Assembly (NCBI RefSeq): GCF_029867415.1
Contig: NC_081183.1
Coordinates: forward strand, 196,323,563-196,387,562
Reading direction: 5' to 3'
DNA length: 64,000 bases
Origin: Vicia villosa
Lineage: Eukaryota > Streptophyta > Magnoliopsida > Fabales > Fabaceae
Part shown: one piece after another, positions 571-19,730 of the stretch
Layout of the letters: every line of letters begins with the position of its first letter
Numbering within the stretch: the first letter of the stretch is position 1
Notes under the pieces: generated by a model
Told to the model about the DNA's origin: nothing
The model's database searches: none
What the model saw: the letters and a program-made list of their open reading frames with translations, nothing else
Program-made: the position numbers and the translations under genes

Positions 571-3500
571 ATGGAAAGTTCTGAACAAGAGAATATTGAG
601 CTTCGTGGTACAGTGACCACTCTTCAGGAAAAATTGGAAAGTCTCACTACTCTGGTTGACTCTTTAATGGCCGCACAGAATCAGCCGCCGCCACCCAACA
701 GTCAAGCAACAGTAACATCTGAGGTTACTACTCCAGTTTCTACGGTTGCATTCGGCATTCCATCTTTCTCCATGCCAGAAGGTTGGGGCACGCCTTTCAG
801 CTTTGGTACAGGTTTCCGCCATAATGTTTCTGGGGTTCAAACATCCACAACTGAAGCGCCTGCTGCTCAGAGTTCACAGTTCACTCCAAATCAGGGGATA
901 ACTTTTTCTCAAGTTACTATGGCACTTTCTCAACCCACTATGACGGTTCCGACTCCTATGGTTCACACTGTTCCTTACGGAGACAATGAGATTTATCATG
1001 ATCAGGGTGATAGCACAAATCAGCGAAGCCTTGTAGGAGATCTCCAAGAACAATTCAACAAGATTCAGCTGGAAGTCAAAGCTATTCGGGGAAAAGATTT
1101 GTTTGGAAAGAATGCCCAGGAGCTATGTTTGGTTCCCAGTGTACAAATACCGGCTAAATTCAAGGTCCCTGACTTTGAGAAGTACAAAGGTAGTTCTTGT
1201 CCACAAAGCCATCTTGTGATGTATGCTAGAAAGATGTCTACTTATGCAGATAATCATCAGTTGCTTATCCATTACTTTCAAGACAGTTTGACTGGTGCCG
1301 CACTGAAGTGGTACACAGGTTTAGATAGCACCAATATTCGGACTTTCAACGACCTAGGTGAGGCCTTTGTCCGACAATACAAATACAACTCGGATATGGC
1401 TCCAGACAGAGATCAGCTCCGATCCATGGCTCAGAAAGATCATGAAGCTTTCAAAGAATATGCCCAACGATGGAGAGAAACTGCTGCTCAGATTAATCCA
1501 CCATTAAAAGAGAAAGAGATGACCAAGATCTTCTTGAATACTCTCGGTCCGTTTTACTATGAACGCATGATTGCTAGCGCTCCAAGTGATTTCACCGAAA
1601 TGGTAAACATGGGGATGCGTTTAGAAGAAGGAGTCCGAACCGGACGTCTGACTAAAGAAGGTGGATCTTCAAGTGGAATCAAAAAGTTTGGAAGTGGTTT
1701 CCCAAAGAAGAAAGAACAAAGTGTTGACATGGTATCCCAAGGAAAGCCAAGAGGAAATGTCAATCGTCAACGACAGGTTGCTTCTATCACACCAGTCGTT
1801 AACACAACACCGAATCCAGGATTCACTCCTCAGTTTCAACAACAACAGCCTCGACAACAGGCTCAGCAGTTAAACAATAATCAGAATCGAGTACAAAGAG
1901 CTCCACAGTTCGATCCGATTCCGATGACCTACACAGAATTGTACCCTGCACTGATTGAAAGAGGCCTTATTCAAACTAAAGCACCACCACCAGTACCTGA
2001 GAGACTCCCATGGTGGTACAAAGCTGAGGTTTCATGCCCTTATCATCAAGGGGCACCTGGCCATGATCTTGAGCATTGCATAGCTTTGAAATATGAAGTT
2101 CAGAGGTTGGTTAGATCTAATCTCCTCTCTTTCAGAAATTTGAATCCTAATGTGCAAGCAAATCCGCTGCCCAATCATGGAGGGCATGTTGTAAACATGG
2201 TATATGGATGTCCTGGCCAATACCGAGTCTATAATATCAACTTCTCAAGAGCAGATTTGGTACAAATGCACGCCACTCTTTGTCGGGGGCAGAATTTTCG
2301 CCAACATCAATACGGTTCCTGTAGAATATGTTGTGTGGATCCTCACGGGTGTTCGATTGTGAGAAGAGATCTCCAAGTACTGTTGGATAATGGTACTATC
2401 CAGATCTACAGAAATAGGGATGAAAATGAAGTTAACATGATAGGATGTTATCCGCATGAGCTTTTAGTCTCAGATATCAACTCGGAAATGCCTACAGTTA
2501 ACGTCATCGTTCCTCATTTCAACATGCCTGAGCGCATGGAAGTTACTTACAACAAGCCAAGGGTTCCTGTTGCTCCTTTGATCATTTGTCTACCTGGACC
2601 TGTTCCTTATGACTCTGACAAGGCAGTTCCATACAACTATAATGCTACAATGATAAAGAATGGACAAGAAGTTCCTTTACCTACTCTTTCATCTGTCGTG
2701 AACATCGCTGATGTGAGTCGAGTAACAAGAAGTGGACGTGTGTATACTCCAAAGCATCCTGTTGCTCCTGCAACCGGGCAAAATCCTGTCAATACACCAG
2801 TAGAGAATCTTGTGGAAACTCCTGTCAGTAATCCAAACACTGATGTTGGTCAATCCAGTGGAACCAATGGCAATCCTGATTTTGATGAAATTTTGAAGCT
2901 TATCAAAAGAAGTGAATATAAGATTGTGGATCAGCTTATGCAGACTCCTTCAAAAATCTCAATACTTTCATTGCTTTTAAACTCAGAAGCCCACAGGGAA
3001 GCCCTGATGAGAGTCTTAGATCAAGCTTTTGTGGATCATGATGTGACTGTTGATCACTTTGATGGGATAATAGCCAACATAACAGCTTGCAACAATTTAA
3101 GCTTCTGTGATGAAGAACTCCCCGAGGAGGGTAGAAATCACAATCTTGCTTTGCACATTTCTATGAACTGTCAGTCAGACTCTTTGTCCAATGTGTTAGT
3201 AGACACCGGATCTTCCTTGAATGTTATGCCAAAGACGACTCTTGCTCGTTTGTCTTACCAAGGAATGCCTATGAAATTCAGTGGTGTGGTAGTCAAAGCA
3301 TTTGATGGATCGCGAAAATCTGTTATCGGCGAAGTCAATCTTCCCATGACAATTGGTCCACATACATTTCAAATCACTTTCCAGGTCATGGACATTCAAG
3401 CTGCTTATAGCTGCCTGTTAGGACGACCATGGATCCATGAAGCAGGGGCAGTAACTTCTACGCTCCACCAAAAGTTGAAATTTGTAACAAATGGAAAATT

Positions 3501-4590
3501 GGTAACGATAAGTGGAGAACAAGCCTTGATGGTGAGCCATTTATCCAATTTCTCTTTCATAAGTGCCGATGATGTGGAAGGAACGCAGTTCCAAGGTCTC
3601 TCTTTAGAAGACGAATCTTCCAAAAAGAAAGCATCAATTTCTTCATATAAAGAGGCAGTAAAAGTAGTGAAAGATGGAACTACCACTGGCTGGGGGCAAG
3701 TTGTGATCCCTACCAAGAATGAAACTAGAGCAGGTCTCGGATGTTCACCAACATTCTCAAACTGCACCAAGAAGGATGAAACCCTTCGTCCGATCAAAGA
3801 AACATTCATTAGTGGAGGATTCCTTAACCCAATTCCTCAAGAGGTTAATGTCCTTATCGAAGAATGCATCGAAGAAGGTCTACCTGATACTGAAGAAGAA
3901 TGGAAGTGTTATCTCAATGACTCAGGATACATATCTCAGGAAGAACCATATCCTCCTTCAGAAGAATCCAATGGCAAAGAAACTGAGCCTGTTCCTGCAG
4001 AAATATGGGACACATTGGGACAACCAAGTGGAAAATTTGATTACATGGTGAAGTATACTGCACCTGAAAGTTACAAGATTGCGATTGAGGATATCCAACC
4101 AACTGGATGGGGAGATTCCTTTGAATATAATAGTCAACCAGAAGAGGCTTATCAGCCTTGTCAATTTTCTCAGCAACCTGAAATTACTGGAGATTTCGGA
4201 TTCAATGCATCTACCAAGATTAACAATCCTGAAGATGGTTACTATCACATAAATGCCATTTTTGAAGATGAAGGGGAAGATGGTCCCGCAATTGACTCAG
4301 AAAGTGTCGCTGACAATGAGTCTCTTCATCCTGAAGACTGGGAAATACATCCTGAAAATTCTGAAGATTGTGACTCATCATATGCTCTTCAAGAAGTAGA
4401 AGAAGACCGTTTCAACTCTACAAAGAACAAGGGTGACAAACCAGGACCTTCAAATCCTGCTCGACCAGCGGTCAATGTCAATACTGAAGATCACTCTGAG
4501 GAGAATTTTCCTGAATACATAATACACAGAGGAGTTCGTTGCTACTGGAAAGCTGTCGACGTTCCGAATGTTGTTCGCCGCTCAAAGTAA
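571..4590 (+). CDS. Ogre gag-protease polyprotein
   Basis: Open frame of 1339 codons. It provides the capsid and the aspartic protease of the element's virus-like particle, in the cytoplasm. An N-terminal Gln/Pro/Thr-rich segment is followed by a retrotransposon-gag domain at about residues 196-358, with FKVPDFEKYKG near its start and LTGAALKWY inside. A Cys/His cluster CPYHQGAPGHDLEHC sits at about 488-503 in the zinc-knuckle position, but the spacing is not classical CCHC. A basic TRSGRVY patch lies near 720. The retropepsin motif DTGSS is at about 878-882, with LLGRPWIH about 90 residues later. The final 300 residues are acidic and low in complexity. The terminal codons overlap a splice donor (GT at 4587), so the native product probably continues into pol after splicing. 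ATG 571 is the first in-frame start after the ORF1 stop. Confidence 0.9.
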   Translation: MESSEQENIELRGTVTTLQEKLESLTTLVDSLMAAQNQPPPPNSQATVTSEVTTPVSTVAFGIPSFSMPEGWGTPFSFGTGFRHNVSGVQTSTTEAPAAQSSQFTPNQGITFSQVTMALSQPTMTVPTPMVHTVPYGDNEIYHDQGDSTNQRSLVGDLQEQFNKIQLEVKAIRGKDLFGKNAQELCLVPSVQIPAKFKVPDFEKYKGSSCPQSHLVMYARKMSTYADNHQLLIHYFQDSLTGAALKWYTGLDSTNIRTFNDLGEAFVRQYKYNSDMAPDRDQLRSMAQKDHEAFKEYAQRWRETAAQINPPLKEKEMTKIFLNTLGPFYYERMIASAPSDFTEMVNMGMRLEEGVRTGRLTKEGGSSSGIKKFGSGFPKKKEQSVDMVSQGKPRGNVNRQRQVASITPVVNTTPNPGFTPQFQQQQPRQQAQQLNNNQNRVQRAPQFDPIPMTYTELYPALIERGLIQTKAPPPVPERLPWWYKAEVSCPYHQGAPGHDLEHCIALKYEVQRLVRSNLLSFRNLNPNVQANPLPNHGGHVVNMVYGCPGQYRVYNINFSRADLVQMHATLCRGQNFRQHQYGSCRICCVDPHGCSIVRRDLQVLLDNGTIQIYRNRDENEVNMIGCYPHELLVSDINSEMPTVNVIVPHFNMPERMEVTYNKPRVPVAPLIICLPGPVPYDSDKAVPYNYNATMIKNGQEVPLPTLSSVVNIADVSRVTRSGRVYTPKHPVAPATGQNPVNTPVENLVETPVSNPNTDVGQSSGTNGNPDFDEILKLIKRSEYKIVDQLMQTPSKISILSLLLNSEAHREALMRVLDQAFVDHDVTVDHFDGIIANITACNNLSFCDEELPEEGRNHNLALHISMNCQSDSLSNVLVDTGSSLNVMPKTTLARLSYQGMPMKFSGVVVKAFDGSRKSVIGEVNLPMTIGPHTFQITFQVMDIQAAYSCLLGRPWIHEAGAVTSTLHQKLKFVTNGKLVTISGEQALMVSHLSNFSFISADDVEGTQFQGLSLEDESSKKKASISSYKEAVKVVKDGTTTGWGQVVIPTKNETRAGLGCSPTFSNCTKKDETLRPIKETFISGGFLNPIPQEVNVLIEECIEEGLPDTEEEWKCYLNDSGYISQEEPYPPSEESNGKETEPVPAEIWDTLGQPSGKFDYMVKYTAPESYKIAIEDIQPTGWGDSFEYNSQPEEAYQPCQFSQQPEITGDFGFNASTKINNPEDGYYHINAIFEDEGEDGPAIDSESVADNESLHPEDWEIHPENSEDCDSSYALQEVEEDRFNSTKNKGDKPGPSNPARPAVNVNTEDHSEENFPEYIIHRGVRCYWKAVDVPNVVRRSK

Positions 4591-4851
4591 TCACCTCGCT
4601 GTTATTTTGACCTCCTGCCTTGCCCAAAGCAGAGAGATGTTTTATAGGGCTTTGCTTTTAAATGTTCCGCCCAAATAACTTTGTGTATAGGGCTTTGTTT
4701 TAAAAGTTTCCCTCTTTGTCCTGCCCAAGGCAAATGAGTTTGTGTTTAGGGCTTTGTTTCAAAAATGAATCATAAATAAAGTGTCATTTTGAATTCCCTA
4801 CATTATATGTTTTATTTTTGCTTTTTCTGGAAATGGTAATCCTAAAAAACC

Positions 4852-4882
<31 letters not shown>

Positions 4883-4952
4883 TTTCAAAAAAAATCTGCA
4901 TACACTCCTGCATTCATAAATTTTCTGAAATAAATATAAATCACATGTGCAG
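4587..4952 (+). other. Intron between protease and RT coding regions of Ogre copy A
   Basis: GT at 4587-4588 overlaps the gag-protease stop codon (TAA at 4588-4590), and AG at 4951-4952 follows TGTGC. Removing the 366 bases leaves two bases of a codon on the left and the third on the right, so the frame passes from protease into pol without a shift or stop. An intron at this place is established for Ogre elements. Inside lie three diverged copies of a 50-60 base motif (about 4611-4762) with CCCAAAGC/GGGCTTTG-type complementary arms, then a run of about 30 A at 4851-4880. Copy B keeps the same acceptor with the same phase (AG at 16079-16080). Splicing itself is inferred. Confidence 0.8.
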
Positions 4953-7900
4953 ATTTACTATTGATAAACCCATTGAATGCAATAACCCTATGCCCTCTCC
5001 CAACTTTGAGTTTCCTGTGTTCGAAGCCGAAGAAGAGGAAGAAGAGGAGATCCCGGACGAGATCTCTCGATTACTTAAGCACGAGGAAAGAGCCATTCTG
5101 CCTCACAAAGAGCCTTTAGAAAAGATCAACTTGGGTTCTGAAGAAGACAAAAAAGAAGTGACCATTGGATCACTGCTTGATGCTGATATCAAGAGTAAGT
5201 TGACAGACCTTCTCAAAGAATATGTTGACGTGTTTGCCTGGTCCTACCAAGACATGCCTGGGTTGGATACCAATATTGTTCAGCATTACTTGCCATTGAA
5301 GCCAGAATGTCCGCCAGTTAAGCAGAAATTGCGAAGGACTCACCCTGATATGGCTAACAAGATCAAAGTGGAAGTTCAAAAGCAACTCGACGCAGGTTTT
5401 CTTGTCACCTCTGAGTATCCTCAATGGTTGGCCAACATAGTGCCAGTTCCGAAGAAAGATGGCAAAGTCAGAATGTGTGTTGACTACCGTGACTTGAACA
5501 AGGCCAGTCCAAAAGATGACTTTCCATTACCACATATCGACATGTTGGTTGATAACACCGCTAAGTTCAACGTCTTTTCCTTCATGGACGGGTTCTCCGG
5601 TTATAATCAGATCAAGATGGCTCCTGAAGACATGGAGAAGACATCTTTCATCACCCCATGGGGTACCTTTTGCTACAAAGTAATGCCATTTGGATTAAAG
5701 AATGCAGGCGCAACTTACCAAAGGGCAATGACTACTCTCTTTCATGACATGATGCATAAAGAAATTGAAGTTTATGTGGACGACATGATAGCCAAGTCCA
5801 GCACAGAAGAAGAACATATTGAATACCTTTTGAAGTTGTTTCAACGGTTAAGGAAGTATCAGCTTCGCTTGAATCCTAATAAATGTACTTTTGGGGTTAG
5901 ATCTGGAAAACTCTTGGGTTTCATTGTCAGCCAAAGAGGTATTGAAGTAGATCCCGACAAAGTCAGAGCTATTCAAGAGATGCCTGCACCAAAAACTGAA
6001 AAGCAAGTAAGAGGATTTCTTGGACGATTGAACTATATCTCCAGATTTATCTCTCAGATGACTGCTACTTGTGGGCCAATTTTCAAGCTTCTCCGCAAAG
6101 ATCAAGGGGTTGTATGGACTGAAGATTGCCAGAAAGCGTTCGACAGTATCAAAGAGTACCTGTTAGAACCACCAATATTGATTCCTCCGGTTGAAGGAAG
6201 ACCATTAATCATGTACCTTACTGTGTTGGAAGAATCCATGGGTTGTATGCTTGGACAACAAGATGAAACCGGTAAGAAGGAGCATGCCATTTATTACCTG
6301 AGTAAGAAATTCACAGACTGTGAGTCTCGTTACTCCATGCTCGAAAAAACATGTTGTGCTTTGGCTTGGGCTTCAAAACGTCTCCGCCAGTACATGATCA
6401 ACAATACTACTTGGTTAATCTCCAAAATGGATCCGATCAAGTATGTCTTTGAAAAGCCTGCCTTAACAGGAAGGATTGCCCGATGGCAAATGCTGTTATC
6501 CGAATATGACATTGAATACCGTGCTCAAAAAGCGGTCAAAGGAAGCATTCTCGCCGATCACTTGGCGCATCAACCAATTAATGAATATCAATCTCTCAAG
6601 TTTGACTTTCCTGATGAAGATGTCTTGTACTTGAAAATGAAAGATTGTGACGAACCATTACCTGAAGAAGGTCCTGATCCTGGATCAAGATGGGGCCTAA
6701 TTTTTGATGGAGCAGTAAACGCTTTTGGCAATGGAATTGGGGCAATCATCATCACTCCCAAGGGTACTCATATCCCGTTCTCTGCCAGATTGCTATTTGA
6801 TTGTACCAACAACATCGCAGAATATGAAGCTTGTATCATGGGTCTCGAAGAAGCCATTGACTTAAGGATCAAGATCCTCGACATATATGGAGATTCAGCC
6901 CTCGTGATCAACCAAATCAAAGACAAGTGGGAAACTTATCACCCTGGCTTGATTCCTTACAGAGATTATGCAAGACGTCTGTTGACTTTCTTCAACCAGG
7001 TTGAATTGCATCATATACCTCGAGATCAGAATCGAATGGCAGACGCCCTGGCTACTCTATCTTCCATGTTCAAAGTCAGTCACTGGAATGATGTGCCTAA
7101 AGTCAGAATTACGCGCCTTGAAAGGCCCGCTTATGTGTTTGCAACTGAAGCAGTCATCGATGATAAACCGTGGTTTCACGACATCAAACGCTTCCTTCAA
7201 ACTCAAGAGTACCCGCTTGGGGCATCAAACAAAGATAAGAAAACTCTAAGGAGACTTTCTGGCAGTTTCTTCCTGAACGGAGATGTGCTATACAAAAGAA
7301 ACTTCGACATGGTTTTGCTCAGATGCGTGGACAGACACGAAGCAGACATGATTATGCATGAAGTGCATGAAGGGTCCTTTGGAACTCATTCAAATGGGCA
7401 TGCAATGTCCAAGAAGATCTTAAGAGCAGGATACTATTGGTTGACAATGGAATCAGACTGTTACAAACACGTGAAGAGATGTCACAAGTGCCAGATCTAT
7501 GCAGATAAGATCCATGTGCCACCGACTCTACTCAACGTTCTCTCATCTCCGTGGCCTTTTTCCATGTGGGGTATCGACATGATTGGAATGATCGAACCAA
7601 AAGCTTCAAACGGTCATCGTTTCATCTTGGTAGCTATTGATTACTTCACCAAATGGGTCGAAGCAGCATCTTACGCCAATGTTACAAGACAAGTGGTTGT
7701 AAGGTTTATCAAGAATAACATCATTTGCCGATATGGTATTCCCAGCAAGATCATTACTGACAATGGTTCAAACTTGAATAATAAAATGATGAAAGAATTG
7801 TGTGAGGAATTCAAGATTGAGCATCATAACTCTTCTCCTTACAGACCAAAAATGAATGGCGCCGTCGAAGCCGCTAACAAGAACATTAAGAAGATCGTCC

Positions 7901-8418
7901 AGAAAATGGTCGTCACTTACAAAGACTGGCATGAAATGCTGCCATTTGCTTTACACGGGTATCGTACCTCAGTGCGTACTTCAACAGGGGCAACTCCCTT
8001 TTCTCTAGTATACGGCATGGAAGCTGTGCTCCCCGTAGAAGTTGAAATCCCATCAATGAGAGTCCTCATGGAAACTAAGTTATCAGAGGCCGAATGGTGT
8101 CAAAGCAGATACGATCAGTTGAACTTAATCGAAGAAAAACGTATGATTGCTCTTTGCCATGGACAGTTATACCAAGCAAGGATGAAACAAGCCTTCAACA
8201 AAAAGGTTCGACCTCGTGAATTTCAAGAAGGCGACCTCGTGCTTAAAAAGATCTTGTCTTTTCAACCAGATTCTAGGGGCAAATGGTCTCCTAATTACGA
8301 AGGCCCGTATGTTGTCAAAAGAACATTTTCTGGCGGCGCCATGACTCTTGCAACCATGGATGGTGATGAACTCCCACATCCTGTGAATGCTGATGCAGTC
8401 AAGAAATACTTTGTCTAA
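4945..8418 (+). CDS. Ogre pol polyprotein: RT, RNase H, second RNase H, integrase
   Basis: Open frame of 1157 codons. If spliced, coding starts at 4953 rather than at ATG 4945. It copies the element RNA into DNA and integrates it. The reverse transcriptase covers about residues 130-330, with the YVDD catalytic box at 277-280. The Ty3-type RNase H lies at about 420-540. A second, archaeal-like RNase H follows at about 585-700, with FDGA, AEYEA, GDSA and ADALA carrying the acidic residues; this extra domain is typical of the Tat/Ogre clade. The integrase has a His2Cys2 zinc region (about 804-848), a core with GIDM near 875, TDNGSN near 938 and VEAANKN near 974, and a GPYVV motif near 1118. No internal stop or frameshift is present. 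The acidic N-terminal stretch (poly-Glu near 30) is shared with copy B. Confidence 0.93.
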   Translation: MCRFTIDKPIECNNPMPSPNFEFPVFEAEEEEEEEIPDEISRLLKHEERAILPHKEPLEKINLGSEEDKKEVTIGSLLDADIKSKLTDLLKEYVDVFAWSYQDMPGLDTNIVQHYLPLKPECPPVKQKLRRTHPDMANKIKVEVQKQLDAGFLVTSEYPQWLANIVPVPKKDGKVRMCVDYRDLNKASPKDDFPLPHIDMLVDNTAKFNVFSFMDGFSGYNQIKMAPEDMEKTSFITPWGTFCYKVMPFGLKNAGATYQRAMTTLFHDMMHKEIEVYVDDMIAKSSTEEEHIEYLLKLFQRLRKYQLRLNPNKCTFGVRSGKLLGFIVSQRGIEVDPDKVRAIQEMPAPKTEKQVRGFLGRLNYISRFISQMTATCGPIFKLLRKDQGVVWTEDCQKAFDSIKEYLLEPPILIPPVEGRPLIMYLTVLEESMGCMLGQQDETGKKEHAIYYLSKKFTDCESRYSMLEKTCCALAWASKRLRQYMINNTTWLISKMDPIKYVFEKPALTGRIARWQMLLSEYDIEYRAQKAVKGSILADHLAHQPINEYQSLKFDFPDEDVLYLKMKDCDEPLPEEGPDPGSRWGLIFDGAVNAFGNGIGAIIITPKGTHIPFSARLLFDCTNNIAEYEACIMGLEEAIDLRIKILDIYGDSALVINQIKDKWETYHPGLIPYRDYARRLLTFFNQVELHHIPRDQNRMADALATLSSMFKVSHWNDVPKVRITRLERPAYVFATEAVIDDKPWFHDIKRFLQTQEYPLGASNKDKKTLRRLSGSFFLNGDVLYKRNFDMVLLRCVDRHEADMIMHEVHEGSFGTHSNGHAMSKKILRAGYYWLTMESDCYKHVKRCHKCQIYADKIHVPPTLLNVLSSPWPFSMWGIDMIGMIEPKASNGHRFILVAIDYFTKWVEAASYANVTRQVVVRFIKNNIICRYGIPSKIITDNGSNLNNKMMKELCEEFKIEHHNSSPYRPKMNGAVEAANKNIKKIVQKMVVTYKDWHEMLPFALHGYRTSVRTSTGATPFSLVYGMEAVLPVEVEIPSMRVLMETKLSEAEWCQSRYDQLNLIEEKRMIALCHGQLYQARMKQAFNKKVRPREFQEGDLVLKKILSFQPDSRGKWSPNYEGPYVVKRTFSGGAMTLATMDGDELPHPVNADAVKKYFV

Positions 8419-8434
8419 AAAATACAAAAGAACA

Positions 8435-8603
8435 GCTCGGTAAGTTGAAAACCCGCAAAGGGCGACTTAGGCAAAAATGAGCGTCTCGGTGGACTGAAAA
8501 CCTGAAAGGGCGGTCCAGGCAAAAATTAGAGACAAAAAACAGAAAAAAATTCATCCTGGTAGATTGAAAACCTGAAAGGGCAATCTAGGCAAAAATTAAG
8601 GAT
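8435..8603 (+). other. Array of three structured RNA-like repeats after the integrase stop (copy A)
   Basis: Three units, each with an outer helix (GCTC/GAGC at 8435-8438 and 8479-8482; GTCTC/GAGAC at 8483-8487 and 8529-8533; ATCCT/AGGAT at 8553-8557 and 8599-8603). An internal loop of 5' GG and 3' GGCAAAAAT(TA) follows. Then comes a 7-bp helix (TAAGTTG/CGACTTA, TGGACTG/CGGTCCA, TAGATTG/CAATCTA), an AAAA bulge on the 5' side, and a 3-bp helix closed by GCAAA or GAAA (GNRA-type). Helix sequences differ between units but stay paired; loops and bulges are constant. The array begins 17 bases after the pol stop codon. Function unknown. Confidence 0.8.
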
Positions 8604-9065
8604 TTATGACAAAGTAACTGCATCAGTCCGTACTTCGTCACCTGAGGAGTCTTCTTCATCAAAGGAACTTCGATCGAATCATTGCCAATCTGAAGCGACA
8701 AGCACAGTTGGAACTCAAAGTTATTTAGGGAATAGTGGTTATTGCTTTCAATGTAGCCTTTTCCGCATAATTACCATTTCCAACTTTTGTAAATACTCCA
8801 TGGAATCACGCCTTTAGCTGATTTCCATTCTATTAAATAAATTTGAGCCTTGTGCCCATTTGTTTGCAATCTTTAATTTCTTTCAGCTTGCGAAATGACG
8901 CTTTAATTGTGTTATTCACTTTTGAAAACAGAAAAAGGAAAAAAAGTTTTAAATGAATTTACTTCACTTTTTCAAAATAAAAGCGAAACTTTCCTTTGAG
9001 TTGTGAACAACAGAAGGAACATCAACAGCTATCTCCACAGGATGAATCAAAGATTATGATAGGAA

Positions 9066-9204
9066 AAGCTCTTCTATCCCCGGTGAAGAAGCTCTTCTAC
9101 CCCCATTGAAGAAGCTCTTTTATCCCCAGTGTCGAAGATTTTCCATCTCCAGTGAAAAGGTTCTTCCATCTCAATGAGAAAAGATGTTTATCTTCCCCAG
9201 AGAA
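9066..9204 (+). repeat. 23-bp tandem repeat, about six copies
   Basis: Units of the form AGCTCTTCTATCCCCGGTGA begin at 9067, 9090, 9113, 9136, 9158 and 9182, with increasing divergence to the right. They lie in the 3' UTR of Ogre copy A. No coding role is apparent. Confidence 0.8.
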
Positions 9205-9444
9205 GTTTAAAGCACGCAACACCATTCATCACCTGTGTTATCTACACCGTGTTGAAGAACATTTGCCAAGTATCTGGTTGTATTGCGACGTCGGTCCCTT
9301 TCCAGTATGTACTTCTTTGTCTGTCAGTATTGTCAGTATGCATATTCATGACATTCATCATTCATACATATTTGCATCATTTATGCATTCTTGCATTTTT
9401 TCAGTGTTTTCTTCGAAATTACTTGTTCAGGATATATCTGTCCC

Positions 9445-9509
9445 AAGAAAAAAAGAAGAGAAGAAAAAGAAAAAAAAAGAAGAAAGAAAAGAAAAAAGAA
9501 ACAAGTATG
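9445..9509 (+). repeat. Purine (A/G) tract
   Basis: About 65 bases of almost pure A and G on the + strand inside the Ogre 3' UTR. It makes chance lysine/glutamate-rich reading frames. It lies about 980 bases before the LTR, so it is not the primer PPT, but it could act as a secondary plus-strand priming site (inference). Confidence 0.7.
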
Positions 9510-9875
9510 GGCGTGTCATCTCTCCAAATAGATTGTCACCCATAAGCAGAAATAACATTTTCTTTCTCCAGTTCCCCACTGAGATCATTCCTCGTGGAAG
9601 AAGGTTTCTTTAGTTTTTCCTCTCAAAACAAAGGAGAAAATCCCCATCGAGTTCATTCCTCATGGGTACAAAGTCTTGTTTGACTGTTTCTTTCCAATTC
9701 ATTCTTGGTTAGAACTTTGTCTTTACCAAAGATTCAAATTCCGATTCCTCAAATAGAGTCGTGAAAAAACAGACAATAAGCAATAGCCTCATCATCTGAG
9801 CAGCTTATGTCTCTTTCAAAAGACATTTCCTCTCAAGGAAATCAATCATGAAGATCATTTGACGATCAGGGCCTT

Positions 9876-10484: not shown

Positions 10485-12062
10485 TGTCATACCCCAATTT
10501 TTGACCTAAGATACCACCTCATATCATTTGCATATGCACCATTTGCATCTCTAACAAATTGCATAGCCTGTGTTTGTTACTTGTGACTCAGCAGGATTTA
10601 AACAAGAAATTACTCATCAGTACAAGTAACAATCAATTAGGGTTTTGTTCTCCCTTCATCTCAAAAGAATTATCTTCATCAATAATCAATATTTGGTCCT
10701 CAGAGATTCACTTCAACAAGCTCAACAGCTTTGAATCGACCAAACTAGGGTTTTGACTGAAGACAGTATACTCCTGACTTTTGCTCAGGATTTGACCTAA
10801 TGACTTGGGACATGACCTCAAGACCCCAAGTACATCATTTTGATCTAATCCATTGGCTCAAGACATCTCCTACACAAGGATTGATCAACAGTGAAATTTC
10901 AAATCATCAGATTAAGGTGTTGAACTATCAGGGACCAAAATCAGGGATCACATTTGGGAAACCCTAAAAACCCCCAGGAAGTCAATCAAAGGTTTCAATC
11001 ATCCTCAAATAATCCCTATGACAATATACAATGGAAATTACATCTCAATTCAAGATCCACAGTCATCAATTTCATCAGGTCGACAATTAGGGTTTTTGAC
11101 CTAATTCACTGAACAACTGACTTTTTAATCAGGACATGGTGTCACAACTCAAACTATGGTTCAATATCCTCTAATGCCTCAATATGATTCATTCATACCA
11201 TTCATTTGGTGAGGGTAGCCTGTTTCATTTGAAATCTCCAGAAACGCGATTCGACTGAAAAAGTCAACTGTACAAGATCACCATTGACTTTTGGGGAATT
11301 TTGGTCAACCATGACTTTTGAAGTTGAAAATCATCAATATATGATATATGAAGTCATTTGATCAAGAAAAATCAAGAAAATCAATCAAGAATCAAAAAGT
11401 CAAAAGTTTGACTTTCCATACTTAGAAAATTTTTCTAAGTGTTTTTCATGGTTTTTTCCAAACTTTGGAGGGGAATAACTCAAAATTTCACCTACAAACT
11501 GAAAAAAACTTCCAACATGAAAGTTGTAGATTTTGATCCAATAAACAACTTTGACACATATAATTTTTTTCCATAAGATCAACCATTTAAGAGATATGGA
11601 GCTTCAAAGTTGGTACTTTTTGAAAATTTCACTTAAAACTTCATTTTTCTCAAAGTTCATGGATCTTTTTCACCCATTTCCTTAAAGGTCTTGAAGAAAC
11701 TTTCAACTAGGCTTTTGAAGTGTGTAACATGAGCTTTCCAAAATGATCAAGAGCATGAAAAAACATGGAGCATAGCTATGGTTTTGAATTTTGTCATTAG
11801 AGGTCCTTATGCTTGAATTTTCACCATTTTCTCACAAAGTTCTTACACTATGTGACCAATAATGCAAGAAATGATCAAATGAAATTATGCAAGTCAGATT
11901 CTTATCATAAAAGATCAGATTGGAGAGAATATTATGGCACTTGAGTTCCTTAACCATGGTTAAGCTTTGTAATCATTGAAAAAATATTCCATGCCATCTT
12001 TTTCCACAAAATTCAATCATAACTTTTCCACTTGCTTGCCCTTCAATTCAGTACTCCTTGCC

Positions 12063-12070
12063 TATAAATA
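12063..12070 (+). promoter_or_regulatory. TATA box of the Ogre copy A LTR
   Basis: TATAAATA preceded by GCC. The same GCCTATAAATA context, followed about 30 bases later by ACACCAAAGCA, occurs in the other LTR (23691-23698). Transcription would start near 12095-12100, making U3 about 1.6 kb. Confidence 0.7.
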
Positions 12071-14097
12071 AGAGAAGGAAATCACATCCAAGAGCACACC
12101 AAAGCATTGAAAAGCTTGCTTTCTCACTTCTTACCTATTTGCAAGTTCTTTCCATTTTTCAAAGAAGTTAGAACTTCAACTTTCAAATCTTGAGAGTTCT
12201 AACTATTGGTGTCATCCAAACATATTCTAAACATTATTTTGAAGTTGTTTGAACCATTAAACCATCACAAAACTATCCAAAAGTCAGTTTCATCACAAAA
12301 ACTCCATGAGTGCACAAATTGAGCCTTAAACCTCCAATTCTCGATCTACTCGTGTATTTACCAAACTATCACCTCAAACATCTTCCATACATCAATTAGA
12401 AGTGATCCAAACATCTGGAACGTTTCTGGATGTAGAGAAACACCATGGCCGTTTTCAGTTTGGAGCCAAAACAGGTGGAGGTCCGTAGAATGATTCAGAA
12501 AGTTTCGAGCAAGTTTAAGAACATCAACATGATCCTTGAACATCACTGAAGCGATCCCAATCATTTCCAAGCTTTGAAGCTTCCTGAATCATGCCCAGTA
12601 ACTCACGGTTTGCTCAAAACTTATTCGGTTCGATTATGATCAATCATGCTTTTTAAATAACTTTTGAATGTATATTATTGTTTATCGTGATGTTCTTAAC
12701 GTTTCTGGATGCTTAATTGCCATTTGGTTACATATTTCACGAGTTGCCATTCTAGGGTTGCGAAGCTTCAAAAATGGGGATCTGTGATAGGGGCCAAATT
12801 AGGTGACAACAAAGGCATATTCGAGCTCAGGGCATGTCACTTGATTGATCTGGGTTACTGTTTTGTTTGTTCATCTTGTTTCATGCAGGTTTGAAATCGG
12901 AGATGATTAGCTACAAAATAGCTGGGAAGAATCCGTAGCTAATTTGTAGCTAAAACTTTTACAGGTTTGTAAGGAAGAAGACGAGGACGTGGCGTCCTCT
13001 GGTTGGTCTATTTGCGCGCGGGCGTTTTTTAAAATTCAGACTAGTCATATGCTTTGTTGACCACGCTTTTACCATGCTCCTTGCTTCAGCAGCCGTCTGA
13101 TCAATCTTGATCATCATCCAACAGGCCTCAGCACGCAGGCTCATCATAGACCCTTGGGGGTCTGCCACACAGGATCACATATATTAATATTTTCTTAATT
13201 AATTTGTTTTTCTTTGCATAATTAATTAAAAATACTTTCAAAAATCCAAAAATCATTTTAATTTCACTTTTAGGTTGATAAAATATTTAATTATTTTTTG
13301 ACATAAAAATATTTTATTTTTATTCATAATTAATTTATTTTGTTAATTAATTAGTAATTGTGTGATTATTTACTATTAATTAATATCAACCAATCAAAAA
13401 ACTCCAAAAAAATATTTTCTTTTTATATTTAGGTTTATACTTGTATAATCTAATTTGTGACATAAAAAGAATTATTTTTCTTGTTAAGTTTAATTATTTT
13501 TATAATTATTTGTTTAATTATCTTATTAATTAACTTAATTCCATTCAAAAAAAAACTCAAAAAAAAATATCTTCTCTTAGATTATTTTCTTTTGAAATCA
13601 TCATATAACCTTCGTGTAATTAATCATTTGAATTTTCATGTTCTGATTTTTGATTACTGTTACAGATCACTTGAATAATTACAATTCATTTAAGGTTTCG
13701 AGATCTGTTTCTTTGTCGTCTTCTGGCTTTGTCTATTTTTCTGTCTTCCATTTGCTACAGAGGATGATCATGAAATAATTTATTTCAAGCATATCACTTG
13801 AAGATCAAGGTAACACCTCAAGCTCAGAAATCCAATTTTCTCATCCTTCGAGGTAAGCCTAAAACGCAACCAACTGTTTTCACAACAGTAATCAATTCAC
13901 TTTCAAATCATGCAACCCATTGTTTTTCAAAACAGTGGGGCCTCTCGAATATTAGAGAGTGTAAGTCCCATTTCTTTTCCTTTTGTACAGTTTTTTAAAC
14001 AATAAAACATTCTTCAAAATAAAATCTTTTCAAACAATTTTCAAATCATTTTCAAAACAACAAAACTTCAAAGAAACTTCAAAACTTTTCAATATAC

Positions 14098-14285
14098 CAT
14101 GGGCCTCCATGTAGGTATAAGTCCCGAGCCCTTTTGTACATACCCATTCCAGTACATGAAATTAGGTATTTCATTGTACGCCTTTTGTACTTATCTCAAT
14201 CAATTTGTTTTTTAACTTTGAACAACAAACCAAAAACGAAGGTTTCTTTAAATCTTCCCAAAAGAAAATACCATGGGCCTCCATG
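14098..14285 (+). repeat. Two copies of a CATGG-GCCT-CCATG hairpin repeat in the LTR
   Basis: CATGGGCCTCCATG occurs at 14098-14111 and 14272-14285. Each is followed by TAGGTATAAGTCCC and a GAGCCCYTTTGTA-like tail. A third, looser relative (GGGCCTCTCC...GAGTCCCGAGCCCC) follows at 14347-14378. Confidence 0.7.
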
Positions 14286-14689
14286 TAGGTATAAGTCCCA
14301 AGCCCCTTTGTAAATACCTGTTTACATAACTTTGAATAAACTCAAAGGGCCTCTCCCCGAGTATGAGTCCCGAGCCCCTGTGTATACAAATGGAGCATGC
14401 TTACAGGTATATTTCCTTCATAAACTCCATTATATACACACACTTTGTCATATATATAACTGTTCATATTTGTTCATGTACTTGTTCATGTTTGTTCGTA
14501 CTTGTTCATACTTGTGATTGTGTTATATGTGTGCTTTTTCAACTTAGTACAACACTAGGTACCCCATAGCCTCCTATTGGGTTTCGTGCAAAGAATCTCC
14601 CTAGTTTAGGTTAGGACATAGAGTATGGTTTCCCGGTGAAATCGCTCTAAGAGCTCAGACCAACTATACCATGCCTCCCCTTGGGCTTT

Positions 14690-14845
14690 GTACAAACGAG
14701 TGACCCTCCCATAGCCTCCTCTTGGGCTTACAATGCAAGGACCCTGGATTGTCCCTCCCATAGCCTCCTCTTGGGCTTACAATGCAAGGACCCTCGGATA
14801 GCCTCCTCTTGGGCTTCGTACAAGGACCCACGGGCTTCTTATAAG
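14690..14845 (+). repeat. Tandem repeat with GCCTCCTCTTGGGCTT core in LTR of copy A
   Basis: Several units containing ATAGCCTCCTCTTGGGCTT followed by an ACAAGGAC- or GCAAGGACC-type tail (14711, 14760 and 14800 regions). CTTG and CAAG arms can pair around the GGCTT loop. The motif is related to the hairpin array in the LTR of copy B. Confidence 0.7.
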
Positions 14846-14954
14846 CATCCCAAATATCCAAAACAAATACCCTAGGAGATTAGACATTTTTCATCTCTAT
14901 GCTAGGAGTATCTCTTATATATCATCACAAACAATCAATCAATCAAAATCAAAC

Positions 14955-15130
14955 TTTTTGCCACAAGGCTGGCTAATCAATCAAACTGTTTTACCACCGT
15001 ACTGGATGATTAATCAAAGTTTTTGTCACAAGGCTGACTTCATTGAAACTTTTGCCACAAGGCTGGCTGATTAATCAAAGTTTTTGTCACAAGGCTGACT
15101 TCATTGAAACTTTTGCCACAAGGCTGGTTA
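14955..15130 (+). repeat. 61-bp repeat with paired CAAGGC-loop hairpins in LTR of copy A
   Basis: GCCA-CAAGGC-TGGC at 14960-14973 and 15054-15067, GTCA-CAAGGC-TGAC at 15025-15038 and 15086-15099, and GCCA-CAAGGC-TGGT at 15115-15128. The last four come from two copies of a 61-bp unit. The change GCCA/TGGC to GTCA/TGAC keeps the stem. The same CAAGGC loop appears in the 3' UTR array at 9876-10177. Confidence 0.75.
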
Positions 15131-15295
15131 AACAAAAACATCTTTATCATTCTAAGCACCCTAAGTGGCATGGCCCCGGGCTTATAATGAAAAGATCTTC
15201 AAACAAAAACAAACAGATGTATGTGATGATATAGATTAGATACATCTAGCATTTAGACGACATTTGTCTATTTTCCTTTGCTTCCACTAGCATAA

Positions 15296-15492: not shown

Positions 15493-15573
15493 AATCAAAC
15501 AAACACCTTAGGTCCCACCTATTTCACAAACAGAACCTTCACCGTAGCATAGAATAAAAAACAATAAAGAACC

Positions 15574-16080: not shown

Positions 16081-16117
16081 ATTAATCATAAAATACCCCG
16101 TTGAAACGTGCGACCGT

Positions 16118-19100
16118 ATGACTTCTCCAAGCTTTGAGTTTCCTGTATTCGAGGCAGAGGAAGAAGAAGACGAAGAAATATCAAAGGAAATTTCACGGTT
16201 ACTTCAACAAAAGGAAGAGGCCATTCAGCCATACAATGAGCCTCTAGAGATCATTAACCTTGGTTCCGATGGAAACAAAAAAGAGGTTAAGATTGGGGCT
16301 TCGCTCAGTTCAGAGATCAGAGAGAGTTTGATACAGCTGCTCAAAGAATTCTCAGATGTCTTCGCTTGGTCTTATCAAGATATGCCAGGGTTGGATACCA
16401 GTATAGTGGAGCATCACTTGCCATTAAAAGCAGAATGCCCTCCGGTCAAGAAAAAATTAAGAAGAACTCATCCGGAGATGGCCATGAAAATCAAAGAGGA
16501 AGTTCAAAAGCAGATCAACGCAGGTTTCCTCGTCACTTCAGAATACCCTCAGTGGTTAGCTAACATTGTTCCCGTTCCTAAGAAAGACGGAAAAGTCCGC
16601 ATGTGCGTCGACTACAGAGATTTGAACAAAGCTAGCCCTAAGGATGATTTTCCTTTACCACATATTGATATGTTGGTAGACAGTACAGCAAAATCCAAAG
16701 TTTTCTCGTTCATGGACGGATTTTCAGGATACAACCAAATCAAAATGGCACCTGAAGACATGGAAAAAACAGCTTTCATCACCCCCTGGGGCACGTTCTG
16801 CTATCGTGTTATGCCTTTTGGACTAAAGAACGCCGGGGCAACTTATCAAAGAGCCATGACTACACTCTTCCATGATATGATGCATAAGGAAGTGGAAGTC
16901 TATGTGGATGACATGATTGCCAAATCAGAAAATGAAGAAGATCACATGCAGAATCTGACAAAGTTATTTCAACGCTTACGGAAGTTTCAGCTTCGCCTGA
17001 ACCCCAACAAGTGTACCTTTGGTGTCTACTCAGGAAAACTCCTTGGTTTCATTGTCAGCAAACGAGGAATTGAAGTAGATCCAGACAAAGTCAAGGCAAT
17101 TCAAGAAATGCCTTCGCCCAGAACCGAGAAACAAGTTAGAGGATTTCTTGGACGTCTGAATTACATCTCAAGATTCATATATCTCATGACAGCAACTTGT
17201 GCTCCTATTTTCAAACTTCTACGGAAAAATCAAAGTTGCGTCTGGACAGACGATTGTCAGAAAGCGTTCGACAGCATTAAGGAATATCTGCTCGAACCAC
17301 CCATCTTGTCTCCTCCAGTGGAAGGAAGACCTTTGATAATGTACTTAACCGTCTTAGAAGATTCCATGGGTTGTGTCCTTGGACAGCAAGACGAGACGAA
17401 GAGAAAAGAGCATGTCATCTACTACCTGAGCAAGAAATTCACTGACTGTGAATCCCGCTACTCCATGCTCGAGAAGACGTGTTGTGCTTTGGCCTGGGCT
17501 GCCAAGCGTCTCCGCCAGTACATGATTCGACATACTACTTGTTTGATCTCTCATATGGATCCAATCAAGTACATCTTTGAGAAGCCTGCTTTAACTGGGA
17601 GAATTGCCCGTTGGCAGATGTTGTTATCAGAATACGACATTGAGTATCACGCACAGAAAGCCGTGAAAGGAAGCATTCTAGCTGAGCACCTGGCTCACCA
17701 CCCACTCAATGGTCATGAATCAACCAGTTTCGACTTTCCGGACGAGGACGTCATGTACCTCAAGATGAAAGATCACGACGAGCCACTACCAGACGAAGGA
17801 CCTGAGATAGGATCCCAGTGGGGCTTGATCTTTGACGGAGCTGTCAATGCTTATGGACGAGGAATTGGGGCAATCATTGTTACACCTCAGGGTACCCATA
17901 TTCCATTTACTGCCAGATTAACTTTCAAATGCACAAACAATGAGGCCGAATATGAAGCTTGCATCATGGGTCTCGAAGAAGCCATGGATTTAAGAATCAA
18001 ACACTTGGATGTATATGGAGATTCTGCTTTGGTCATCAATCAAATCAAAGGAGAATGGGAAACACGCCAACCAGGGCTAATTCCTTACAAAGACTACGCG
18101 AGAAGATTATTACCATTCTTCGACAGGGTAGATTTTCATCACATTCCTCGTGAAGAAAACAATTTGGCTGATGCATTAGCCACACTCTCTTCCAAGATTA
18201 GGATAAATCATTGGAATGACATTCCTCAGATTGATGTTATGCGCCTGGATAGGCCCGCTCATGTTTTCACAATAGAAGCAATCATCGACGACAAACCGTG
18301 GTATCACGACATCAAGAACTTTCTTCAAAAGCAAGAGTACCCTCTTGGGGCATCAAAGAAAGATAGAAAAACTTTGAGAAAGTTAGCTTGTAAATTCTTC
18401 TTGAATGAAGATGTTCTGTACAAGAGAAACTTCGACATGGTTCTGCTCAGATGCGTTGACAGAAAAGAAGCAGAAATACTCATGAGAGAAATACATGAAG
18501 GTTCCTTTGGTACTCACACCAATGGACATACCATGACAAGGAAAATACTGAGAGCAGGATATTATTGGCTGACGATGGAGTCAGATTGCTTCCAGTACGC
18601 AAAGAGGTGTCACAAATGCCAGATCTACGCCGATAGAATTCATGTGCCACCATCTCTTCTCAACATACTCTCTTCCCCTTGGCCTTTCTCCATGTGGGGA
18701 ATCGACATGATTGGAATGATCGAACCAAAAGCGTCCAACGGACATCGCTTCATCTTGGTAGCCATAGACTATTTCACCAAATGGGTTGAAGCAGCTTCAT
18801 ATGCAAACGTTACAAGACAAGTTGTCGTCAGGTTTATCAAGAATCACATCATATGTCGCTACGGCGTTCCTAGCAAGATAATCACTGACAATGGGTCAAA
18901 TTTGAATAACAAAATGATGAAGGAGCTTTGTGAAGAATTCAAGATTGAACATCACAACTCATCTCCTTACAGACCAAAGATGAATGGAGCTGTAGAAGCA
19001 GCTAACAAAAACATCAAGAAAATCATTCAGAAGATGGTCATCACTTACAAAGATTGGCATGAAATGCTCCCGTATGCTCTTCATGGTTACCGTACTTTAG

Positions 19101-19546
19101 TACGTACTTCGACTGGAGCAACTCCTTTCTCCCTTGTATATGGCATGGAAGCAGTCCTACCTATAGAGGTTGAGATTCCATCAATGAGAGTTTTGATGGA
19201 GGCAAAATTAACAGAAGCCGAGTGGTGTCAAAGCAGATTCGATGAATTGAACTTAATCGAAGAAAAGCGCATGACAGCTTTATGCCACGGACAGCTATAT
19301 CAACAAAGAATGAAGAAAGCTTTCGACAAAAAGGTTCGACCTCGCACAATCAAAGAAGGCGACCTTGTACTCAAAAAGATTCAATCTTTTCTCACAGATT
19401 CGAGAGGGAAATGGACTCCCAATTATGACGGCCCCTACGTGGTCAAGAGAGCTTTCTCAGGAGGAGCCTTAATACTCACGACTATGGATGGAGAAGAATT
19501 CACCCGTCCTGTGAACGTCGACGCAGTCAAGAAATACTTCGCCTAA
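16118..19546 (+). CDS. Ogre pol polyprotein, copy B (RT, RNase H, second RNase H, integrase)
   Basis: Open frame of 1142 codons, colinear with pol of copy A. The frame is open upstream to the splice acceptor at 16080, so in a full element coding would begin at 16081 and ATG 16118 need not be the true start. YVDD lies at residues 262-265. The second RNase H keeps FDGA, AEYEA, GDSA and ADALA. The integrase keeps GIDM, TDNGSN and VEAANKN, and the GPYVV motif is present near the C-terminus. There are no frameshifts or stops, which is notable because gag and protease are absent from the same copy. Selection on pol, recent truncation or chance could explain this. Many third-position differences from copy A imply they are not a recent duplicate pair. 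Confidence 0.92.
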   Translation: MTSPSFEFPVFEAEEEEDEEISKEISRLLQQKEEAIQPYNEPLEIINLGSDGNKKEVKIGASLSSEIRESLIQLLKEFSDVFAWSYQDMPGLDTSIVEHHLPLKAECPPVKKKLRRTHPEMAMKIKEEVQKQINAGFLVTSEYPQWLANIVPVPKKDGKVRMCVDYRDLNKASPKDDFPLPHIDMLVDSTAKSKVFSFMDGFSGYNQIKMAPEDMEKTAFITPWGTFCYRVMPFGLKNAGATYQRAMTTLFHDMMHKEVEVYVDDMIAKSENEEDHMQNLTKLFQRLRKFQLRLNPNKCTFGVYSGKLLGFIVSKRGIEVDPDKVKAIQEMPSPRTEKQVRGFLGRLNYISRFIYLMTATCAPIFKLLRKNQSCVWTDDCQKAFDSIKEYLLEPPILSPPVEGRPLIMYLTVLEDSMGCVLGQQDETKRKEHVIYYLSKKFTDCESRYSMLEKTCCALAWAAKRLRQYMIRHTTCLISHMDPIKYIFEKPALTGRIARWQMLLSEYDIEYHAQKAVKGSILAEHLAHHPLNGHESTSFDFPDEDVMYLKMKDHDEPLPDEGPEIGSQWGLIFDGAVNAYGRGIGAIIVTPQGTHIPFTARLTFKCTNNEAEYEACIMGLEEAMDLRIKHLDVYGDSALVINQIKGEWETRQPGLIPYKDYARRLLPFFDRVDFHHIPREENNLADALATLSSKIRINHWNDIPQIDVMRLDRPAHVFTIEAIIDDKPWYHDIKNFLQKQEYPLGASKKDRKTLRKLACKFFLNEDVLYKRNFDMVLLRCVDRKEAEILMREIHEGSFGTHTNGHTMTRKILRAGYYWLTMESDCFQYAKRCHKCQIYADRIHVPPSLLNILSSPWPFSMWGIDMIGMIEPKASNGHRFILVAIDYFTKWVEAASYANVTRQVVVRFIKNHIICRYGVPSKIITDNGSNLNNKMMKELCEEFKIEHHNSSPYRPKMNGAVEAANKNIKKIIQKMVITYKDWHEMLPYALHGYRTLVRTSTGATPFSLVYGMEAVLPIEVEIPSMRVLMEAKLTEAEWCQSRFDELNLIEEKRMTALCHGQLYQQRMKKAFDKKVRPRTIKEGDLVLKKIQSFLTDSRGKWTPNYDGPYVVKRAFSGGALILTTMDGEEFTRPVNVDAVKKYFA

Positions 19547-19561: not shown

Positions 19562-19730
19562 GCTCGCTAAGTTGAAAACTCGCAAAGAGCGGCTTAGGCA
19601 AAAAAGAGCGTCTCGGTGAATCGAAAACCCGAAAGGGCGATTCAGGCAAAAGTTAGAGACATAAAAAATAAATAATCAATCCCGGTAAACTTAAAACCCG
19701 AAAGGGGTAGTTTACGCAAAAGTTAGGGAT
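19562..19730 (+). other. Array of three structured RNA-like repeats after the integrase stop (copy B)
   Basis: Same architecture as 8435-8603. Outer helices: GCTC/GAGC (19562-19565, 19606-19609), GTCTC/GAGAC (19610-19614, 19656-19660), ATCCC/GGGAT (19679-19683, 19726-19730). Middle helices: CTAAGTTG/CGGCTTAG, TGAATCG/CGATTCA, GTAAACT/AGTTTAC. The AAAA bulge is kept. Inner helices: CTC/GAG around GCAAA, then CCC/GGG around GAAA twice. Relative to copy A, ATCCT/AGGAT became ATCCC/GGGAT and CCC/GGG became CTC/GAG, both paired changes. The third unit has one extra base beside the bulge. Confidence 0.8.

What the first reader, a model, noticed from the sequence alone, without database searches (positions are those of the whole stretch)
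8435..8603. Three-unit structured array directly after the integrase stop codon, conserved with paired substitutions
Each unit shows three stacked helices (4-5 bp outer, 7-8 bp middle, 3 bp inner), a constant GG/GGCAAAA internal loop, a constant AAAA bulge and a GNRA-type GAAA or GCAAA cap. Across six units in two diverged elements the middle stems are UAAGUUG/CGACUUA, UGGACUG/CGGUCCA, UAGAUUG/CAAUCUA, CUAAGUUG/CGGCUUAG, UGAAUCG/CGAUUCA and GUAAACU/AGUUUAC: different in sequence, still paired. Loops are invariant while stems covary, which is the pattern of a selected RNA, not of slippage. Possible roles: packaging, RNA stability, dimerisation, nuclear export, or translation control after pol. 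I do not know of a description of this structure.
Basis: seen in the sequence. Interest (0 to 1): 0.88.

Follow-up and report, generated by a model that had tools for sequence, protein, structure and literature searches.

The report
Repeated RNA hairpins after retrotransposon pol
A plant jumping gene carries, just after the stop codon of its polymerase gene, a row of look-alike RNA hairpins whose paired letters change together, which points to an undescribed RNA signal the element keeps under selection.

Summary
Three hairpin units lie at 8435-8603, 16 nt after the pol stop of an Ogre-type Ty3/gypsy element from a Vicia-like legume; three counterparts follow a second pol at 19562-19730. The pols differ at 56% of fourfold sites, yet units 1-2 are about 85-90% identical and unit 3 about 70-75%; DNA just beyond falls to 25-33%. 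Between elements, 10 of 11 changed stem pairs still pair, 6 by double change; none of 200000 random placements broke so few. Stems hold 6 G.U and 0 A.C pairs, pointing to the sense RNA.

Lacking plant DNA, I searched proteins with the array's antisense translation: 115 of 120 listed hits back-translate to at least one unit, 88 to two or more, in all three frames, with stems that covary (weaker within unit classes). 47 of 76 readable flanks match antisense pol ends. Rfam has no match.

Function is inferred: most likely a protein-docking array shielding the pol stop from nonsense-mediated decay; nuclear export is the main rival. How many Tat families carry it could not be measured.

The parts
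571..4590 (+). gag-protease ORF of element 1 (1339 aa)
   Evidence: PF03732 Retrotrans_gag at 236-325 (1.8e-12); aspartyl protease hits (PF13650, PF13975) below their cut-offs at 874-954
4591..4944 (+). 354-nt gap between gag-protease and pol ORFs, in the place of the Ogre intron
   Evidence: ORF coordinates; Ogre ORFs are separated on average by 274 bp, a region shown in pea and Medicago to be a partly spliced intron (PMC6317226 passage); splicing not tested here
4945..8418 (+). pol ORF of element 1: RT, RNase H, additional RNase H-type domain, integrase; stop TAA 8416-8418
   Evidence: Pfam RVT_1, RT_RNaseH, RVT_3, Integrase_H2C2, rve; 97-99% identical to the three best hits, Vicia villosa predicted proteins
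8419..8434 (+). 16-nt A-rich spacer between stop codon and first unit (15 nt in element 2)
   Evidence: sequence
8435..8482 (+). hairpin unit 1 (GCAAA cap)
   Evidence: alignment, pair counts, consensus fold and covariance model
8483..8533 (+). hairpin unit 2 (GAAA cap), directly abutting unit 1
8534..8552 (+). A-rich unpaired linker between units 2 and 3
   Evidence: sequence and consensus fold
8553..8603 (+). hairpin unit 3 (GAAA cap)
16118..19546 (+). pol ORF of element 2 (83% aa identity to element 1 pol)
19562..19609 (+). hairpin unit 1 of element 2
19610..19660 (+). hairpin unit 2 of element 2
19679..19730 (+). hairpin unit 3 of element 2 (irregular register)

Best explanation
Supported by the data: the array is a cis-acting RNA element of Ogre-type Tat retrotransposons. 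It acts on the sense strand and consists of several copies (up to five detected) of one hairpin design, beginning in this window 15-16 nt after the pol stop codon. Selection keeps the pairing of the stems and most letters of the A-rich bulge, internal loop and cap. I put 0.93 on this part. Inferred: each unit is a docking site for one RNA-binding protein, and several copies give avidity. The array sits just beyond the edge of a ribosome terminating at the pol stop (ribosome footprint recalled), at the start of a fast-changing 3' region, and most of its unpaired bases are A. [quoted passage not shown] The bound protein is unknown; poly(A)-binding protein is one guess because the unpaired parts are A-rich. 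The confidence given is for the whole statement including this mechanism.
For: RNA-level selection: fourfold sites of the two pols differ at 199 of 353 (JC distance 1.04), the array is about 85-90% identical over units 1-2 (70-75% over unit 3), the stretch 8639-8738 25-33%. Of 44 stem pairs, 33 are unchanged, 6 changed on both sides, 4 on one side with pairing kept, 1 broken; random placement of the same 18 changes gives on average 7.1 broken and 1.46 double (P 1.1e-4 for 6 or more doubles; 0 of 200000 with at most 1 broken). RNAalifold on the two arrays proposes nearly the same helices and also counts 6 doubly changed pairs among 43. Wider: 115 of 120 listed proteins back-translate to at least one unit, 88 to two or more, up to five; 4 of 600 shuffled proteins give one. 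Over 145 distinct units, 111 middle stems can pair fully against 81.3 +- 3.6 in shuffles, 0 of 500. With a looser codon rule 114 of 145 pair at the true register and 0-15 when slid. Inner-stem codons co-vary: P-G 67, P-R 22, L-R 10, L-G 0, Fisher 4e-6, 6 of 105 units with other residues left out. Position: 47 of 76 tails match antisense pol ends; in 20 of the 47 the last detected unit starts 7-24 nt from the stop, as in this window (19-20 nt), in 17 at 55-74 nt, about the place of the second unit, and in 10 elsewhere. Unpaired bases of element 1's array: 64 of 97 are A; paired: 17 of 88. Precedent: the RSV element lies immediately downstream of the gag stop, has a minimal size of 155 nt, and the authors' data suggest that the pol and src 3'UTRs may act so too (PMC2925335 abstract). 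In plants a readthrough structure just downstream of a viral stop codon stabilised an NMD-sensitive reporter (PMC6277124 abstract).
Against: Nothing here tests function. In the same plant study a second segment protects through lack of structure after the stop, and creating a stable hairpin there abolished resistance (PMC6277124 abstract). The unspliced RNA ends Gag-protease translation at 4590, 3.8 kb upstream, which this array would not shield. The RSV element works through polypyrimidine tract binding protein 1 (passage in PMC5784592), while the unpaired parts here are A-rich. Closeness to the stop may be mere inheritance, and 10 of 47 matched tails imply other distances.
Confidence: 0.38

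Rival explanations
1. Nuclear export element: the repeated A-rich loops recruit plant export adaptors so that unspliced, intron-keeping Ogre RNA leaves the nucleus, working like the transport elements of IAP and musD (and of MPMV, recalled).
For: Ogre has a partly spliced intron between its ORFs (PMC6317226 passage), in the place of the 4591-4944 gap. IAP and musD carry structured export elements (PMC12786077 section 6). Several copies of one loop design suit multivalent docking.
Against: No reason for such an element to start 15-20 nt after the stop. Plants do not use the NXF1 receptor that the mammalian elements recruit (PMC12786077 section 6), so another partner would be needed. No experiment.
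Confidence: 0.25
2. Packaging or dimerisation signal: Gag or kissing interactions use the hairpins to select or pair genomic RNA.
For: Repeated hairpins with exposed loops and strong conservation.
Against: The array should be in spliced and unspliced RNA alike, so it cannot by itself select full-length RNA. The caps are GAAA or GCAAA, not self-complementary palindromes.
Confidence: 0.12
3. Translation control: a 3' cap-independent enhancer, or a signal that recycles or redirects ribosomes at the pol stop.
For: Place directly after the stop; structured 3'UTR enhancers exist in plant RNA viruses (recalled).
Against: Readthrough would add only 9 codons (element 1) or 7 (element 2) before the next in-frame stop (sequence). 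The nucleotide homology between the elements does not extend past 8855 into the downstream 153-aa ORF at 9152-9613.
Confidence: 0.12
4. Antisense protein-coding sequence: conservation reflects a protein read on the minus strand, and hairpins are by-products.
For: Minus-strand ORFs cross parts of the array and similar 'proteins' exist in databases. Antisense ORFs are common downstream of pol in the related Retand lineage (PMC11963269 section 11, part 1 of 2).
Against: The same DNA unit appears in all three frames among 145 distinct units (108, 28 and 9) and frames mix within single ORFs. Changes in the window follow pairing. Stems there hold G.U and no A.C on the sense strand.
Confidence: 0.02
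5. DNA-level feature (cruciform or recombination substrate) or leftover of tandem duplication and slippage.
For: About half of the Retand elements in one survey carry tandem repeats between pol and the 3' LTR (PMC11963269 abstract), and this window has a 77-bp array of seven listed copies at 21095-21856.
Against: Units differ in stems while keeping pairing; slippage predicts alike stems and no compensation. Wobble pairs in the window are one-sided, 6 G.U to 0 A.C.
Confidence: 0.04

Closest known systems
[quoted passage not shown]
   Same: Structured RNA, minimal size 155 nt, immediately downstream of a retroelement stop codon; the authors suggest the pol and src 3'UTRs may act likewise (PMC2925335 abstract).
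   Different: RSE follows gag. That it lacks repeats of one design and is pyrimidine-rich is recalled. Here several repeated hairpins with A-rich loops follow pol, in plants.
Retroelement RNA transport elements (IAP RTE, musD MTE; MPMV CTE recalled)
   Same: Structured RNA elements that let unspliced full-length RNA leave the nucleus (IAP and musD: PMC12786077 section 6). That the CTE repeats one loop design is recalled.
   Different: They use the NXF1 pathway, while plants use TREX as primary machinery (same section); no sequence or loop comparison was made here; that their distance from the stop is not fixed is recalled.
Carmovirus stop-proximal NMD-resistance elements (Turnip crinkle virus)
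   Same: Plant system; RNA just after a stop codon protects from NMD (PMC6277124 abstract).
   Different: One is a readthrough structure, the other works by absence of structure.
Hypervariable 3'UTR tandem repeats of plant LTR retrotransposons (Macas 2009)
   Same: Same region between pol and 3' LTR (title seen in a reference list; content recalled).
   Different: Those are sequence-homogeneous tandem arrays (recalled); here the units keep structure while stems diverge.

Membership tests
Ogre clade of Tat Ty3/gypsy elements | additional RNase H between RNase H and integrase (PMC6317226 passage; shared with Retand) | tested here: met
   RVT_3 at 597-704, between RT_RNaseH 419-521 and Integrase_H2C2 795-852
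Ogre clade of Tat Ty3/gypsy elements | gag-protease and pol in two ORFs separated by a short region (average 274 bp) | tested here: met
   571-4590 and 4945-8418, 354 nt apart, in element 1; no gag was found for element 2
Ogre clade of Tat Ty3/gypsy elements | the region between the ORFs is a partly spliced intron | not testable with these tools
   no transcript data
Ogre clade of Tat Ty3/gypsy elements | primer-binding site type and target-site duplication | not tested
   LTR ends were not mapped
Ogre clade of Tat Ty3/gypsy elements | position in a reverse transcriptase tree | not tested
   no tree was built
Rfam families (release 15) | score at or above a family's gathering threshold | tested here: not met
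   0 matches in 64 kb
RSE-like NMD insulator | lies immediately downstream of a stop codon | tested here: met
   15-16 nt after stop in both elements
RSE-like NMD insulator | stabilises RNA with a long 3'UTR by evading NMD | not testable with these tools
   needs reporter assay
CTE/RTE-type export element | promotes export of unspliced RNA | not testable with these tools
   needs reporter assay

The most novel reading that the evidence does not exclude
The array founds a new RNA family: a modular, copy-number-variable hairpin element carried by a large group of plant Ogre-type retrotransposons and read by a so far unknown plant RNA-binding protein that recognises the AAAA bulge and GGCAAAA loop. 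It would be the first described cis-acting post-transcriptional control element (export or decay escape) of a plant LTR retrotransposon that I could find.
Probability: 0.4. Interest if true: 0.85.

Novelty: new variant of a known kind. Interest (0 to 1): 0.72.

Why it matters
Ogre elements are abundant in legume genomes, especially Fabeae (recalled). [quoted passage not shown] A compact element with a clear consensus, compensatory changes and variable copy number turns that question into reporter and pull-down experiments, and the unit design could serve as an RNA-family model for annotating 3' regions of Tat elements.

Tried and rejected
Led nowhere: viral-contig scans with tight and loose motif patterns and with two pol/integrase alignments gave no relative (the single pattern hit L001 has no array around it, and the same letters stand in the Cloacimonadota record L019). 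Genome contigs gave no pol relative and 21 pattern hits. In the listing (22 loci with L001) none shows the flanking array; that is my reading by eye. The best covariance-model score among these 22 loci is 17.5 bits. Full-text searches for motif letters found 0 papers and 1 unrelated neuroscience paper. Whole-genome search did not complete.

Rejected: antisense protein (three frames, mixed in single ORFs); stop-codon readthrough into a long ORF (next in-frame stop after 9 and 7 codons); slippage only (stems differ but pair).

Limits told against the reading: the 120 proteins were found by similarity to the array's own translation, so their consensus is partly circular and says nothing on how many Tat families lack the array. 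160 proteins passed E<=10 and only the 120 listed were examined; 5 of these 120 gave no unit. The scan tolerated one wrong codon per unit. In the codon tables serine was counted as AGY at codon 3 (and as TCN at codon 10), an assumption that favours pairing; 2 of 105 units were left out of the codon 3/10 table and 13 of 105 out of the codon 2/11 table, and by their second bases 9 of these 13 cannot pair. Much of the middle-stem covariation (table [[63,13],[3,24]]) separates unit classes; within classes it is weaker (P 0.04 u2-like, 0.03 other, no variation in u1-like). 34 of 145 distinct units cannot pair all seven middle positions, and 34 of 370 determined pairs are not standard, 10 of them sense A.C. 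In 199 second-position pairs (serine left out), 164 are Watson-Crick, 13 sense G.U, 7 sense A.C and 15 other, so strandedness is weaker there than in the window (6 to 0). 29 of 76 tails did not match antisense pol, and 10 of 47 matched tails imply other spacings. In one search the measure 'further pair types' was lower than in shuffles (9 against 10.9). The shuffle controls do not allow for relatedness.

Not in print: searches gave no description of this array in the listings and abstract starts shown; PMC11963269 has no 'secondary structure', 'stem' or 'hairpin' in its main text, and PMC6317226 has no 'hairpin' or 'secondary structure'. Most subscription papers are not in the library and supplements could not be opened.

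Papers seen: PMC11963269 abstract, find, section 11 part 1 of 2; PMC6317226 passages; PMC5784592 passages; PMC6277124 abstract; PMC2925335 abstract; PMC12786077 passages and section 6.

Full report
What was checked. The window holds two Ty3/gypsy pol ORFs, 4945-8418 and 16118-19546, 83% identical in protein, with RT, RNase H, a second RNase H-type domain (RVT_3) and integrase. The three best protein relatives are Vicia villosa predictions at 97-99% identity, so the window comes from a Vicia-like legume. The second RNase H between RNase H and integrase, and in element 1 the two-ORF layout with a 354-nt gap, fit the Ogre clade as read in PMC6317226 (passages); no tree was built. Directly after each pol stop lie three hairpin units.

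Chance and selection. Between the two elements fourfold-degenerate sites differ at 199 of 353 (JC 1.04). In 40-column windows the array is 85-90% identical over units 1 and 2 and 68-78% over unit 3 and its borders, and the DNA at 8639-8738 drops to 25-33%. A stretch of non-coding DNA that changes much less than synonymous sites is under selection. Of 44 stem pairs compared unit by unit, 11 changed: 6 on both sides with pairing kept, 4 on one side with pairing kept, 1 broken. Placing the same 18 changes at random 200000 times gave a mean of 7.1 broken and 1.46 double pairs; none had so few broken pairs, and 0.011% had 6 or more doubles. RNAalifold on the two arrays proposes nearly the same helices and also counts 6 doubly changed pairs among 43. 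In the six-unit alignment 98.3% of cells pair, and covariation is 0.640 against 0.399 in shuffles (0 of 500) and at most 0.207 when slid; one measure, further pair types, is not raised. Folding energy is only mildly low. The stems hold 6 G.U and no A.C pairs, so the RNA is most likely the one that carries pol.

Relatives. I therefore searched predicted proteins with the antisense translation of the array, which has long minus-strand reading frames in both elements. The first search gave 5 proteins of 16 candidates, and a second with those added gave 160 at E<=10, 120 listed, the 5 among them. I back-translated the 120 to codon sets and looked for the unit's loops, leaving the middle stems free and allowing one wrong codon: 115 of 120 hold at least one unit, 27 one, 59 two, 24 three, 4 four, 1 five, against 4 of 600 shuffled proteins with any. 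Units occur in all three reading frames (108, 28, 9 of 145 distinct) and frames mix in one ORF, so the letters conserved are nucleotide letters and these 'proteins' are not a protein family. Five of the 120 name an organism, each time Medicago truncatula (P0144, P0163, P0175, P0215, P0218; the last has no unit). The rest name none, so breadth across plants is unknown.

Pairing in the relatives. Over 145 distinct units, 111 middle stems can pair fully, against 81.3 (sd 3.6) when halves are swapped within frame classes, and 336 of 370 fully determined pairs (90.8%) are standard against 83.5% (0 of 500 shuffles reach either). With a looser codon rule, 114 of 145 pair at the true register and 0-15 at slid ones. 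Paired codons co-vary: second bases at codons 3 and 10 [[63,13],[3,24]], P 3.5e-11, 103 of 105 units, serine read as AGY at codon 3; at codons 2 and 11 [[86,0],[1,5]], P 1.2e-7, 92 of 105 units, most of the 13 left out being unable to pair there; inner stem P-G 67, P-R 22, L-R 10, L-G 0, P 4e-6, 99 of 105 units. Relatedness inflates these figures; within unit classes the middle-stem table gives P 0.04 and 0.03, and the inner-stem table 0.0017, 0.25 and 0.03.

Place. Of the 115 unit-bearing proteins, 76 run 20 or more residues past the last unit; 47 of these tails match antisense translations of the pol end at E<=0.01. The inferred distance from the last detected unit's GG to the stop is 7-24 nt in 20, 55-74 nt in 17 (about one unit further out) and other values in 10; in the window it is 20 and 19 nt. 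Of 123 distances between successive units, 52 are 16 codons, the spacing of units 2 and 1 in the window, and 43 are 22 or 23. In element 1, 64 of 97 unpaired bases from the stop to the end of unit 3 are A.

How it may work. Supported: a sense-strand RNA structure under selection, repeated, next to the pol stop. Inferred: each unit binds one protein, and copies add avidity. The place directly after the stop, ahead of a fast-changing 3' region, leads me to a stop-codon-linked role, decay insulation, as in the Rous sarcoma virus element, which lies immediately after a stop, has a minimal size of 155 nt, and whose authors suggest that the pol 3'UTR may act alike (PMC2925335 abstract; PMC5784592 passages). 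In plants a structure after a viral stop stabilised an NMD reporter, though another segment of the same virus needs lack of structure (PMC6277124 abstract). The main rival is nuclear export: an intron is spliced from only part of Ogre transcripts, mammalian elements carry export structures, plants do not use NXF1, and a review knows of no direct plant work (PMC12786077 section 6). Packaging and translation control remain possible.

Known or new. Rfam release 15 has no match in the window. Searches listed no description of this array, within an open-access library only and judged from listings and abstract starts. It is best filed as a new variant of a known kind: a cis-acting structured RNA of a retroelement, with no described plant counterpart that I could find.

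Noticed in passing
8740-8880 and 19868-20000: A second conserved block (70-88% in 40-column windows from 8739 to 8876) after the saturated stretch: a hairpin around ATGGAATCA...TGATTTCCAT with every predicted pair unchanged and a following TAAATTTGAGCCTTGTG; no covarying pairs, so structure is unproven.
   Followed up: partly
21095-21856: A 77-bp tandem array (seven overlapping 300-nt copies listed at 77-nt steps) in the 3' region of element 2.
   Followed up: no
34667-44529: Complete-looking Copia element on the minus strand with LTRs 99.84% identical over 1260 bp, gag and pol ORFs, and an extra ORF 36458-37570 after pol with a sub-threshold match to PF20167 Transposase_32 (43 bits, cut-off 45).
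   Followed up: no
48191-51208: Minus-strand ORF of 1005 aa without a Pfam match at E<=0.001.
   Followed up: no
55722-56362 and 57730-58370: 641-bp direct repeats, 93% identical, 2 kb apart, possibly LTRs of a short element.
   Followed up: no
11600-16118: No counterpart of element 1's gag is detectable elsewhere in the window, so none upstream of pol 2 (tblastn E<=1e-4); element 2 looks 5'-truncated or has a very different gag.
   Followed up: no
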